Made by a program: the position numbers and the translations under genes. This document shows, piece by piece, positions 8,397 through 38,379 of a stretch of 38,379 bases of DNA; positions within the stretch are counted from its first letter, which is position 1, and each line of letters begins with the position of its first letter. The notes beneath the pieces were generated by a model. That model searched no databases. It saw nothing but the letters and a program-made list of their open reading frames with translations, and had not been told where the DNA came from. The DNA lies in contig JACUUQ010000003.1 of assembly GCA_014859175.1 (NCBI GenBank), forward strand, positions 1 through 38,379. The letters are read 5' to 3'. The stretch comes from Lutibacter sp. GTDB taxonomy: Bacteria; Bacteroidota; Bacteroidia; Flavobacteriales; Flavobacteriaceae.

Positions 8397-8780
8397 TTAG
8401 GAAACGAATTGCGGCGGTTTTAATAAAGACTGATAGAAATCTTGTGAAGTGTATTTATTAACAAAAAATCTATGCGTATAAACTTCTTCAAAATTTTTCA
8501 AAGAATAGGAAAATTGATCTAAAGATGAAACAGGATATTTTTCAAAATCAATTTGGGGAACGGTAGATTTATGGTCGTGATTGTCGTGATTTGCTTTTTT
8601 AATTTGCTTCTCTAAATAACACTTACCATTGCATTCTAACGAAGGTTTGTCTCTGTTTTCGCAAAGTACCGTGGCTATATAATCATAATTGGCATAATAC
8701 TCCATAATTGGAACCAATGGACGAACCATGGCCAATAAATAGAGCAGGTAAAAAAATATGCCGAAAAACTGATTTTTCAT
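8397..8780 (-). CDS. Small membrane-anchored Cys/His-rich protein (CNGKCYL, HDNHDHK), likely co-transcribed with the TonB receptor
   Basis: N-terminal hydrophobic segment, LECNGKCYLEKQIKKANHDNHDHK; same strand, upstream of the receptor. Confidence 0.72.
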   Translation of the reverse strand: MKNQFFGIFFYLLYLLAMVRPLVPIMEYYANYDYIATVLCENRDKPSLECNGKCYLEKQIKKANHDNHDHKSTVPQIDFEKYPVSSLDQFSYSLKNFEEVYTHRFFVNKYTSQDFYQSLLKPPQFVS

Positions 8781-8829: not shown

Positions 8830-8843
8830 GTGACAAAAGTCAC
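8830..8843. promoter_or_regulatory. Crp/Fnr-type palindrome GTGAC-AAAA-GTCAC
   Basis: Perfect 5-4-5 palindrome ~50 bp upstream of the ATG at 8780; related sites at 32032 and 36813. Confidence 0.6.
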
Positions 8844-32031: not shown

Positions 32032-32043
32032 TGATTTATGTCA
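32032..32043. promoter_or_regulatory. Crp/Fnr-like site TGATTTATGTCA upstream of diheme cytochrome
   Basis: TGAT-N4-GTCA, 65 bp upstream of the ATG; compare 8830 and 36813. Confidence 0.45.
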
Positions 32044-32108: not shown

Positions 32109-32963
32109 ATGAAAACATTAAAATTATTTTTTGTAACTGCACTTTTAGCCATTGCTTTTACAAGTTGCACTCATGATGACGCTATTGTTGATCCAGCAGT
32201 AATTGCTTATGAAAATGCTGATGCCGTAAATGGAGGCAAAATGTATGACAAATTTTGGAGAACTGATACGGATTTTGATCAAAATAATGCAAACATCACC
32301 ACACTTAGTGCTAAAGCTGACTTTTTCCGATGCAAACAATGTCATGGATGGGATGGTTTGGGAAATGCAGGTTCTTATATTAATAGAGCTCCAAGAACAA
32401 GCCGCCCTAATATTGCAGCAGGAAATATTTATGTATTGGGACAAACCAAAACACCACAACAACTTTATGACGGTTTAACCAAAGCTACAGGAAGAAGAGG
32501 AATCGCTACAGATTTATCTACCTACGACCCTACAACAAATGCAACAGAAGGCGATAAAATGCCAAATCTTACCGAAGTTTTAACTGATACCCAAATTTGG
32601 GATCTTGTAAAATTTTTAAAAGAAGGAATGTTGGATGTAACTCAATTATATGATGCAACCATCACCGGAACTTACCCAACCGGGACTTTTGCAATTTCAA
32701 ATGTTGGTAAGGATGGTAATGCCGCAACAGGGAAAACACTTTACGCTTCCAAATGTGCATCTTGTCACGGTGCCGATGGCTCAAAAATTATTATTGAATC
32801 TATGACTGTGGGTCAGTTTACAAGAAAAAAAGGAAATGAAGTACAGCACAAAGTTAATTACGGTATTGACGGTAAAATGCCTGAATATAATCTTACGCTT
32901 GCACAAATGAAAGATGTTTACAAAGCACTTGCTGATGTTACTGCTTTTCCAGATGTACAATAA
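32109..32963 (+). CDS. Diheme c-type cytochrome lipoprotein
   Basis: Lipobox-like AIAFTSCTHDD; two CXXCH motifs (CKQCH, CASCH). Confidence 0.9.
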   Translation: MKTLKLFFVTALLAIAFTSCTHDDAIVDPAVIAYENADAVNGGKMYDKFWRTDTDFDQNNANITTLSAKADFFRCKQCHGWDGLGNAGSYINRAPRTSRPNIAAGNIYVLGQTKTPQQLYDGLTKATGRRGIATDLSTYDPTTNATEGDKMPNLTEVLTDTQIWDLVKFLKEGMLDVTQLYDATITGTYPTGTFAISNVGKDGNAATGKTLYASKCASCHGADGSKIIIESMTVGQFTRKKGNEVQHKVNYGIDGKMPEYNLTLAQMKDVYKALADVTAFPDVQ

Positions 32964-36467: not shown

Positions 36468-36812
36468 TTTCTATAATTTGGTTTTGGTGAACAAAATTAC
36501 AAAAAAAATGAGCTCTTTTTGAATTGTGATAATTAAATTTAAAAATATAGTTTTTTATTTTTTGCCACTTTCATAATTTCAATAATAAAAATCATTTAAA
36601 TATTATATATAATCTAATTTTAAATACAAATTTATTTACAATGCATAAAATTGTCATTAGACTTAAATCAATTGATTTAAAATTTGAATCATTTACAACA
36701 ATCAAAAATTACTTTGTAACAATTGTAGCGTTAAAATTGCGTTAAATTATCTATTAATTTTTAGAATATAAATTATAGTATTGATAATCAATATTTTAAA
36801 AATTAAAAAAGA

Positions 36813-36824
36813 TGACTTTTATCA
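36813..36824. promoter_or_regulatory. Crp/Fnr-like site (A)TGACTTTTATCA(T) upstream of hexaheme cytochrome
   Basis: Near-perfect 5-4-5 palindrome 65 bp upstream of the ATG at 36890; one mismatch from the 8830 site (minus strand TGACTTTTGTCA). Confidence 0.55.
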
Positions 36825-36889
36825 TAATAATACGAAAAACATGTTCTTAAATTTATTAGATATTTAAAAACAAACAAATATCTAATATT

Positions 36890-37924
36890 ATGAAAAATTT
36901 AAAATTAATAGGTTTCTTGATGATTTTAGCATCAAGCTTAATGTTTATTCAATGTACCAGTGAGGCTATTCCTGGAACAGCCGGTATTGATGGCACTAAC
37001 GGTCTTGACGGTGCAGATGGCCTTAACGGTGTTGGTGTCCAAGAATGTGTTGCTTGTCACAGCAATACTCACAGAGATGCAATTTATGATGCATTCGCCT
37101 TATCTCAGCATGCTGAAGGCGCAACAGTTGCTTACGCAGGTGGTCGAGATTCTTGTTCTCGTTGCCATTCAAATGAAGGTTACGTAAACTTTATTACCGG
37201 AAAAACAGCAGTTGCTATTGCAAACCCTACTGCTATTTCTTGTACTACTTGCCACAACAAACACAGTAGTTTCGACTTCGTAAATGATGGCAATGACTTA
37301 GCTTTGAGAAATATAGGTCCTACACCTTTAGATTTAACAGATGTTGGTTACGTAATAGATTACGGTAATAAAAGCAACGTCTGCGTTTCTTGTCACCAAC
37401 CAAGATCAAAAGCTCCGGTGGATGCAGATAATGATGGACTTTATTTACAAGCCAATTCAAGATTTTATCCTCATTATGGTGGTCAATCCACTATGCTAGA
37501 AGGAATTCAAGGCGCTGTTATTGCAAATGGTTCTACTCCTATTCCTGCAGCAGGATCAGCCGCACACAGAACTGGTGCTTCTTGTACCGCTTGTCATATG
37601 GGCGCATCAACTGATGGAGGAGAAGCTGGTTTGCATACATTTAATGCAAGTTTTTCCGCTCCAATATGTAAAACTTGCCATACTGCAGTACCAACTGAAG
37701 TTGCTGGTTTGGCTGCCGATATGGCCACCTTACACGATAAATTATTTGAGCTTGGTTTGATAGCGGAAGATGGATCTACATTAAAACAAACCGAATTAAT
37801 TCCTTTTAAAACTGCGCAAGCATTGTGGAATTATAAAACTGTTGAAGAAGACCATAGCCACGGCGTGCATAATCCAAATTATGCAAAAGCATTAATTAAA
37901 AATGCTCTTGAAGCAGTTAACTAA
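36890..37924 (+). CDS. Hexaheme c-type cytochrome lipoprotein with collagen-like linker
   Basis: Lipobox-like LMFIQCTSE; Gly-X-Y run GTAGIDGTNGLDGADGLNGVG; six CXXCH motifs (CVACH, CSRCH, CTTCH, CVSCH, CTACH, CKTCH). Confidence 0.92.
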   Translation: MKNLKLIGFLMILASSLMFIQCTSEAIPGTAGIDGTNGLDGADGLNGVGVQECVACHSNTHRDAIYDAFALSQHAEGATVAYAGGRDSCSRCHSNEGYVNFITGKTAVAIANPTAISCTTCHNKHSSFDFVNDGNDLALRNIGPTPLDLTDVGYVIDYGNKSNVCVSCHQPRSKAPVDADNDGLYLQANSRFYPHYGGQSTMLEGIQGAVIANGSTPIPAAGSAAHRTGASCTACHMGASTDGGEAGLHTFNASFSAPICKTCHTAVPTEVAGLAADMATLHDKLFELGLIAEDGSTLKQTELIPFKTAQALWNYKTVEEDHSHGVHNPNYAKALIKNALEAVN

Positions 37925-38084: not shown

Positions 38085-38379
38085 ATGAAAAAAATATTTC
38101 AAATTTTATTAATCGTATGCGCGGGTTTAGCGATGAACTCTTGTTATTATAATGAATTAATAGAAAGGCCTATTCCTGAATTGCCTGCTGATGTAGAAAT
38201 TTTATTTGGAACCCAAATACAACCTTTTTTCACGAACAGTTGTGCCGGTTGCCATAATGCCAGCAGAAATCCAGATTTAAGAGAAGGTTTTGCTTATAAC
38301 GCTCTTGTGCCGCAATATGTTACCGCCAATAACGCTGATGCAAGTCCATTGTATGTTAAACTAGAAGGCGGTCATCAAA
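38085..38379 (+). CDS. c-type cytochrome-like lipoprotein, 3' truncated by window edge
   Basis: MKKIFQILLIVCAGLAMNSCYYNELIERPIPELPADVEILFGTQIQPFFTNSCAGCHNASRNP... with lipobox and CAGCH. Not in the supplied ORF track because it is open at the edge. Confidence 0.85.
   Translation, partial: MKKIFQILLIVCAGLAMNSCYYNELIERPIPELPADVEILFGTQIQPFFTNSCAGCHNASRNPDLREGFAYNALVPQYVTANNADASPLYVKLEGGHQ

What the first reader, a model, noticed from the sequence alone, without database searches (positions are those of the whole stretch)
36890..37924. Hexaheme cytochrome lipoprotein with a collagen-like Gly-X-Y N-terminal spacer
Between the lipidated Cys and the first heme lies GTA-GID-GTN-GLD-GAD-GLN-GVG, seven consecutive Gly-X-Y triplets. 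This may act as a stalk or trimerisation segment that projects the heme domain from the outer membrane, a notable architecture for extracellular electron transfer.
Basis: partly seen in the sequence, partly recalled or inferred. Interest (0 to 1): 0.62.

Follow-up and report, generated by a model that had tools for sequence, protein, structure and literature searches.

The report
Gly-X-Y-tethered hexaheme lipoprotein of Bacteroidota
A six-heme electron-carrying protein anchored to the outer membrane by a short collagen-patterned tether turns out to be the first gene of a widespread, apparently low-oxygen-controlled electron-transfer operon in flavobacteria, and its tether is conserved across its phylum, although there is no sign that it forms a collagen-like trimer.

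Summary
In detail: 36890-37924 encodes a 344-aa lipoprotein with six CXXCH motifs and seven Gly-X-Y triplets between the lipidated Cys22 and heme 1. It is not chance. All 49 Flavobacteriaceae orthologues examined carry 5-10 triplets there, and so do all 19 intact single-domain homologues from other Bacteroidota families; two homologues on one contig filed as an actinobacterial MAG have an acidic linker instead.

All six hemes have a conserved second histidine, suggesting bis-His electron transfer rather than catalysis. The nearest solved structure is OcwA, a cell-surface cytochrome of Thermincola. The gene opens a strictly ordered operon: hexaheme lipoprotein, optional EB_dh lipoprotein, monoheme lipoprotein, DUF5777 barrel, Fe-S, NrfD, membrane protein, cytochrome c. 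A CRP/FNR-type box precedes it in 48 of 49 genes (about 1 expected).

Trimerisation is not supported: proline is 7% of linker residues, the tether is low-confidence in the monomer model, and MtrC and MtrF carry a similar run. A flexible tether on a surface- or outer-membrane-facing electron carrier is most likely. Extracellular electron transfer is plausible but unproven: the DUF5777 barrel model has only 12 strands, probably too few to enclose a cytochrome as MtrB does. New variant of a known kind.

The parts
36890..37924 (+). hexaheme lipoprotein gene (HEX), 344 aa
   Evidence: 49 Flavobacteriaceae orthologues in alignment A1
36812..36825 (+). CRP/FNR-type palindrome ATGACTTTTATCAT, starting 78 nt before the ATG
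   Evidence: TGAY-N4-RTCA upstream of 48 of 49 Flavobacteriaceae orthologues against about 1 expected from shuffles; 32 ATGAY-N4-RTCAT sites in the genome against 2 for the reversed control pattern
36864..36889 (+). strongly conserved 5' leader (AACAAACAAATATCTAATATT) just before the ATG
   Evidence: 83-96% DNA identity of leader plus signal-peptide region across the genus even where the heme domain is about 40% identical
36890..36952 (+). lipoprotein signal peptide, residues 1-21
   Evidence: sequence; helix 2-20 in the model; Cys22 at least 90% conserved
36953..36955 (+). lipidation Cys22, with an acidic residue at +4 (Glu25)
   Evidence: D/E at +4 in 48 of 49 orthologues
36974..37036 (+). 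Gly-X-Y run, seven triplets, residues 29-49
   Evidence: 5-10 triplets in 49 of 49 Flavobacteriaceae orthologues
37046..37060 (+). heme 1 CVACH (C53-H57)
   Evidence: invariant
37154..37168 (+). heme 2 CSRCH (C89-H93)
   Evidence: invariant
37241..37255 (+). heme 3 CTTCH (C118-H122)
   Evidence: invariant
37382..37396 (+). heme 4 CVSCH (C165-H169)
   Evidence: invariant
37583..37597 (+). heme 5 CTACH (C232-H236)
   Evidence: invariant
37667..37681 (+). heme 6 CKTCH (C260-H264)
   Evidence: invariant
38085..38379 (+). monoheme lipoprotein (MONO), second gene of the operon, cut by the contig end; the genome continues on contig C82 (locus L091) with a DUF5777 barrel
   Evidence: same gene order in complete relatives

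Best explanation
It is an outer-membrane-anchored hexaheme electron-transfer lipoprotein of the OcwA / octaheme-nitrite-reductase fold group, without a catalytic heme, and the terminal component of a low-oxygen-induced respiratory operon. Proposed route: a NrfD-type membrane subunit with a Tat-exported Fe-S subunit exchanges electrons with the quinone pool; a periplasmic monoheme cytochrome c passes them to outer-membrane lipoprotein cytochromes linked to the DUF5777 barrel; the hexaheme domain is the outermost carrier and reduces an acceptor at or beyond the cell surface. The Gly-X-Y segment is a hydrophilic, acidic, extended and flexible tether of roughly 20-40 residues that lets the heme head reach away from its lipid anchor and dock to its partners. 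It is kept for spacing and disorder and is not a trimeric collagen stalk. Shown here: the architecture, conservation, operon, upstream boxes and fold similarity. Inferred: the direction of electron flow, surface exposure, the acceptor, FNR control and the mechanical role of the tether.
For: Run conserved in 49 of 49 Flavobacteriaceae and in 19 of 19 intact single-domain homologues of other Bacteroidota families, found with a profile of the heme domain alone (A2), so the spacer did not bias the search. Six CXXCH plus six further (near-)invariant His: H74, H125, H195, H226, H249, H327. No CXXCK motif. Best solved fold: OcwA, E 5.6e-5, probability 1.00, TM 0.48; profile search OcwA 6.6e-16, then ONR, NrfA, MtrC. 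Operon order HEX-[EB_dh]-MONO-DUF5777-[TAT90]-FeS-NrfD-TM309-CYTC in almost every relative with enough flank. Homologues elsewhere in the phylum sit beside large multiheme cytochromes (11-14 hemes), cytochrome b/Rieske subunits or a CXXCH-bearing 400-aa protein. CRP/FNR-type box upstream in 48 of 49; the same motif precedes a CRP/FNR regulator gene with a CSHC motif, a CcoI/FixI-like P-type ATPase, a cytochrome c, ResB, HemA and three further transcription-unit starts of this cluster. Tether below pLDDT 50. MtrC and MtrF have a like run after their lipid Cys.
Against: The barrel model has 12 strands and resembles NanC/FapF, not the 26-strand MtrB, so a cytochrome inside the barrel is unlikely and the electron path across the outer membrane is not explained. 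No periplasmic multiheme cytochrome is in the Flavobacteriaceae operon. The surface-export signal is only partial (one acid at +4; F. johnsoniae consensus SDDFE, PMC5080379). No experiment on the family was found.
Confidence: 0.58

Rival explanations
1. The Gly-X-Y segment folds as a short collagen triple helix and makes the cytochrome a trimer that stands off the membrane.
For: Strict Gly at every third position in all orthologues; relatives in other families have more canonical GPE-GPA-GPP-GKD runs, one above Pfam's Collagen cut-off with about 14 triplets.
Against: 5-10 triplets only, Pro 7% of linker residues, Lys/Arg 0.4%, Asp/Asn at most Y positions, a composition that by general knowledge of collagen stability should be far too weak alone. 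MtrC carries a similar run and is a single copy in the MtrCAB complex. No separate trimerisation domain recognised.
Confidence: 0.1
2. The lipoproteins face the periplasm: the hexaheme protein stores or relays electrons between the NrfD module and a soluble reductase or oxidase, and DUF5777 is a substrate channel, not a conduit.
For: Only a 12-strand barrel; a CRP/FNR-type box shared with cytochrome c, ResB and heme-biosynthesis genes; partial surface-export signal only.
Against: No terminal enzyme is encoded in the conserved operon; nearest fold is a cell-surface cytochrome; homologues end multiheme clusters beside a 435-aa candidate barrel and a 14-heme cytochrome; a long tether makes most sense for an extended reach.
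Confidence: 0.3
3. It is a nitrogen-oxide or sulfur-oxide reductase related to NrfA/ONR.
For: Profile similarity to NrfA and octaheme nitrite reductases in the C-terminal half; the box is shared with a NorC-like cytochrome gene.
Against: No CXXCK or other free-site heme; every heme has a conserved second His; below the Pfam C552 cut-off (21.9 against 24.1).
Confidence: 0.05
4. The Gly-X-Y run is a neutral low-complexity linker maintained by DNA slippage.
For: Length varies, largely in steps of nine bases (linkers of 22-39 residues), and some relatives show near-identical GVD repeats.
Against: Phase and position kept across families; synonymous codons differ between triplets; absent only from lineages with another N-terminal architecture.
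Confidence: 0.12

Closest known systems
OcwA (PDB 6i5b), outer cell wall cytochrome of Thermincola
   Same: Best structural match and best profile match in the PDB; c-type multiheme electron-transfer fold of the same group as NrfA/ONR; linked to extracellular electron transfer (from memory).
   Different: OcwA has more hemes (nine, by my recollection), belongs to a Gram-positive and has no lipid anchor or Gly-X-Y tether that I know of (not tested).
MtrC/MtrF/OmcA outer-membrane decaheme cytochromes
   Same: Lipid-anchored multiheme outer-membrane cytochromes; MtrC and MtrF have a Gly-every-third run right after the lipid Cys: CGGSDGNNGNDGSDGG (MtrC), CGGSDGDDGSPGEPGK (MtrF); encoded with a barrel; weak PF22113 hit.
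   Different: Ten hemes and beta-domains; TIGR03507 score 26.4 against cut-off 209.3; partnered with a 26-strand MtrB barrel and a decaheme MtrA.
Cytochrome c nitrite reductase NrfA / octaheme nitrite reductase
   Same: Similar C-terminal heme region and the WNY...HNP.YA motif.
   Different: No catalytic lysine- or open-ligated heme; six bis-His candidates; lipoprotein.
Porin-cytochrome (Pcc/Mtr) gene clusters, reported for Ignavibacterium album among others (PMC4245776)
   Same: Outer-membrane cytochrome encoded with a barrel and, here, a quinone-side module.
   Different: In Flavobacteriaceae the barrel is DUF5777 (12 strands in the model), with monoheme instead of multiheme periplasmic partners; no description of this operon was found.
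DsrOP / QrcCD / NrfCD and alternative complex III modules
   Same: Tat-exported Fe-S subunit plus NrfD plus a cytochrome c.
   Different: No molybdopterin-type or pentaheme subunit in the operon; below every equivalog cut-off shown.

Membership tests
OmcA/MtrC family (TIGR03507) | model score over the curated cut-off 209.3, ten hemes | tested here: not met
   26.4 bits, six hemes
Collagen repeat (PF01391) | score over 27.2 bits | tested here: not met
   P0001 7.6 bits; L155 homologue 31.8, L149 20.9, L060 19.1
Collagen-like stalk protein | triple-helical trimer | not testable with these tools
   single-chain prediction only; linker pLDDT below 50
NrfA / octaheme nitrite reductase | catalytic heme without distal His ligand (CXXCK or equivalent) | tested here: not met
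   six CXXCH, six conserved distal His candidates, no CXXCK
OcwA-like cytochromes | same overall fold | tested here: inconclusive
   E 5.6e-5, probability 1.00, but TM 0.48 and rmsd 6.4
OcwA-like cytochromes | cell-surface terminal reductase function | not testable with these tools
   needs experiment
Porin-cytochrome (Mtr/Pcc) electron conduit | outer-membrane cytochrome gene in one operon with an outer-membrane barrel gene | tested here: met
   DUF5777 barrel gene downstream in the relatives with enough flank; barrel model pLDDT 84
Porin-cytochrome (Mtr/Pcc) electron conduit | barrel wide enough to sheathe a multiheme cytochrome, and that cytochrome encoded alongside | tested here: not met
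   12 strands, nearest NanC/FapF; only monoheme partners in Flavobacteriaceae
Bacteroidota surface lipoprotein | lipoprotein export signal: acidic stretch at +2 to +6 (QKDDE / SDDFE) | tested here: inconclusive
   D/E at +4 in 48 of 49, rarely at +3, +5 or +6 (PMC5080379)
FNR-controlled gene | CRP/FNR palindrome upstream, conserved | tested here: met
   48 of 49 genes against about 1 expected
FNR-controlled gene | oxygen-dependent expression through that regulator | not testable with these tools
   needs experiment

The most novel reading that the evidence does not exclude
A so far undescribed outer-membrane respiratory system of Bacteroidota: a low-oxygen-controlled NrfD quinone module wired through monoheme carriers and a small DUF5777 barrel to Gly-X-Y-tethered hexaheme surface lipoproteins, moving electrons across the outer membrane without a cytochrome sheathed in a large barrel. 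Linked to it, a Gly-every-third tether behind the lipid anchor would be a recurrent design rule of surface multiheme cytochromes in unrelated lineages (this family, and MtrC/MtrF).
Probability: 0.3. Interest if true: 0.82.

Novelty: new variant of a known kind. Interest (0 to 1): 0.6.

Why it matters
Extracellular respiration is little described in flavobacteria, which are abundant in marine sediments and water. A conserved, FNR-box-marked operon with a surface-type cytochrome in about 10% of the Flavobacteriaceae genomes sampled (38 of 400), including about two thirds of the genus (24 of 38), gives a concrete target for testing whether these bacteria respire extracellular acceptors when oxygen runs low. 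The tether gives a testable rule for recognising outer-membrane-anchored multiheme cytochromes.

Tried and rejected
Sequence search of the PDB with the single protein gave nothing useful; the alignment profile did. 'of' with a locus id failed. Literature on DUF5777: none; collagen-like plus multiheme plus lipoprotein: none; Gly-X-Y with MtrC/OmcA: nothing relevant; the large-scale outer-membrane cytochrome survey PMC11475568 has no mention of Bacteroidota, Flavobacter or collagen in its main text; PMC8258643 describes a Bacteroidetes multiheme cluster without this family named. Trimer prediction was not possible (single-chain folding, both jobs used). The idea that the leader region is a cassette shared by many genes was not borne out: long matches in the genus sit at this locus, and shorter good ones inside or near the cluster (G014, and C82:1192-1237 in front of the second monoheme gene). 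A NrfA-like enzymatic role was rejected for lack of a free heme site.

Full report
CHECK OF THE OBSERVATION. The ORF at 36890-37924 on the + strand codes for 344 aa with a lipoprotein signal peptide (FIQ|C22), six CXXCH motifs and, at residues 29-49, seven glycines at every third position: GTA GID GTN GLD GAD GLN GVG. Shuffling gives a run of seven in 0 of 200,000 whole-protein shuffles and 3 of 100,000 shuffles of the linker's own letters. At DNA level the pattern of six GG pairs at nine-base spacing is found in this genome only here and in one G-rich repeat. The codons of the triplets differ synonymously, so this is not fresh slippage.

CONSERVATION. Homologues were found in 24 of 38 genomes of the genus and 38 of 400 of the family; named hits are mostly Lutibacter, so the window most likely comes from a Lutibacter-like flavobacterium (inference; the genome itself is unnamed). 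All 49 Flavobacteriaceae proteins aligned carry 5-10 triplets in a linker of 22-39 residues; X is mostly Val/Ile/Thr/Ala and Y mostly Asp/Asn/Ala. To avoid bias I searched 396 Bacteroidota genomes with the heme domain only (A2). Of the homologues found, all 19 distinct single-domain lipoproteins outside Flavobacteriaceae with an intact N-terminus also have the run directly after the lipidated Cys, there with a more collagen-like make-up (for example CTGPEGPAGPPGKDGKDGSPG), while fourteen longer, mostly nine-heme relatives have another N-terminal region and no run. Two homologues on one contig filed as an actinobacterial MAG (L012) have an acidic linker instead. On an IQ-TREE tree the trait needs two changes against 13.8 for shuffled labels. 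Pfam's Collagen model is below its cut-off for the window protein (7.6 against 27.2 bits) but above it for a relative (31.8, L155).

WHAT THE PROTEIN IS. In A1 (51 sequences) ten histidines are invariant and two nearly so: six belong to CXXCH and six are extra (H74, H125, H195, H226, H249, H327). The simplest reading is six bis-His hemes, i.e. an electron carrier; there is no CXXCK. AlphaFold2 gives mean pLDDT 81 with residues 23-49 below 50. Foldseek finds OcwA of Thermincola (E 5.6e-5, probability 1.00, TM 0.48), then NrfA and octaheme nitrite reductases without significance. A profile search of PDB sequences gives the same order: OcwA 6.6e-16, octaheme nitrite reductase, multiheme cytochrome cF, NrfA, with MtrC further down.

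THE OPERON. The window ends inside the next gene (monoheme lipoprotein, 38085-). The rest of the operon in this genome begins at the start of contig C82 (barrel at 62-916); adjacency of the two contigs is inferred from relatives. In almost every relative with enough flank the order is hexaheme lipoprotein, optional EB_dh-family lipoprotein (PF09459), monoheme lipoprotein, DUF5777 barrel (PF19089), optional small Tat protein, Fe-S protein (DsrO/NrfC-like), NrfD (PF03916), a ~300-aa membrane protein without Pfam match, cytochrome c. On C82 the Fe-S/NrfD/cytochrome c unit is present three times and the monoheme/barrel pair appears to be duplicated. In other Bacteroidota families the homologue closes clusters with a Rieske protein, cytochrome b, 11- and 14-heme cytochromes and a 435-aa protein that may be a barrel (no family match), or precedes a 400-aa CXXCH-bearing protein that looks like a fused cytochrome-barrel (no family match, not modelled) plus Rieske and 13-heme proteins. 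So the protein travels with quinone-side modules and, in Flavobacteriaceae, with a predicted outer-membrane barrel, but with different partners in different lineages.

REGULATION. TGAY-N4-RTCA, the CRP/FNR core, lies upstream of 48 of 49 Flavobacteriaceae genes, mostly 71-95 nt before the ATG; shuffles give about 1. In this genome ATGAY-N4-RTCAT occurs 32 times against 2 for the reversed pattern. Sites precede a CRP/FNR-family regulator gene whose product carries a CSHC motif near its start, a divergent P-type metal ATPase of the CcoI/FixI kind, a NorC-like cytochrome c, a ResB-family cytochrome maturation gene, HemA, and four transcription-unit starts of the present cluster. Expression at low oxygen is therefore the best guess; it is inferred, not shown.

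HOW IT LIKELY WORKS. Quinol electrons enter through NrfD/Fe-S, pass by monoheme cytochrome c to outer-membrane lipoprotein cytochromes and on to the hexaheme head, which hands them to an acceptor at the surface. The weak link is the outer membrane. The DUF5777 model is a 12-strand barrel closest to NanC/FapF, probably too narrow to hold a cytochrome as the 26-strand MtrB does (PMC7198977). Either the lipoproteins hand electrons over at the barrel's rims in a way not seen before, or the chain stays on one side. Hence about 0.6 for the surface route and 0.3 for a periplasmic one.

THE TETHER. A trimeric collagen stalk is unlikely: short runs, 7% Pro, 0.4% Lys/Arg, low confidence in the monomer model, and the textbook surface cytochromes MtrC (S. 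oneidensis, S. baltica) and MtrF have four to five Gly-phased triplets right behind their lipid Cys (a Geomonas OmcA/MtrC protein has four), while MtrC is a single copy in MtrCAB. I read the pattern as an extended, hydrophilic and acidic leash. Whether the Gly phase itself matters is open. The acid at position +4 (48 of 49) with no positive residue nearby is partly like the Bacteroidetes lipoprotein export signals (QKDDE, SDDFE; PMC5080379), which supports but does not prove surface export.

NOVELTY. No paper in the searchable library describes DUF5777, this operon or a Gly-X-Y tether on multiheme cytochromes. Most subscription papers and preprints are not covered, so this is not proof. The protein is a new variant of a known kind (outer-membrane multiheme lipoprotein cytochrome), with an unusual conserved tether and an undescribed operon.

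Noticed in passing
window 32032-32043 and 32109-32963 (+): A diheme cytochrome c lipoprotein (CTHDDAIVDP...) has a CRP/FNR-type box TGATTTATGTCA starting 77 nt before its ATG, the same spacing as the hexaheme gene; in L004 and L008 a diheme cytochrome gene lies near the hexaheme gene.
   Followed up: partly
locus L091 (G000 contig C82) 3084-15475: Three tandem copies of the Fe-S / NrfD / membrane protein / cytochrome c unit, each with its own cytochrome c, downstream of a duplicated monoheme-barrel pair.
   Followed up: partly
window 36864-36972 and genus relatives: The 5' leader and signal-peptide DNA is 83-96% identical across the genus even where the heme domain is only about 40% identical in protein; may reflect RNA-level or regulatory constraint.
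   Followed up: partly
L005 3239-4277 and L018: In one relative (filed as a Gelidibacter MAG) a frameshift separates the leader from the Gly-X-Y run and heme domain; real or assembly error unknown.
   Followed up: no
L142 10537-11733, L155 11614-12870, L141 6726-7949: A 400-aa protein with an early CXXCH and an aromatic C-terminal end, next to the hexaheme gene in family f33, looks like a fused monoheme cytochrome-barrel (Cyc2-like architecture, from memory); no family match.
   Followed up: no
L155 8080-16553: Three hexaheme paralogues in one genome with tethers of very different length (about 14, 5 and 5 triplets) but near-identical signal peptides.
   Followed up: no
window 8831-8842: Another CRP/FNR-type box, upstream of the 127-aa ORF 8397-8780 (-), which has no Pfam match.
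   Followed up: no
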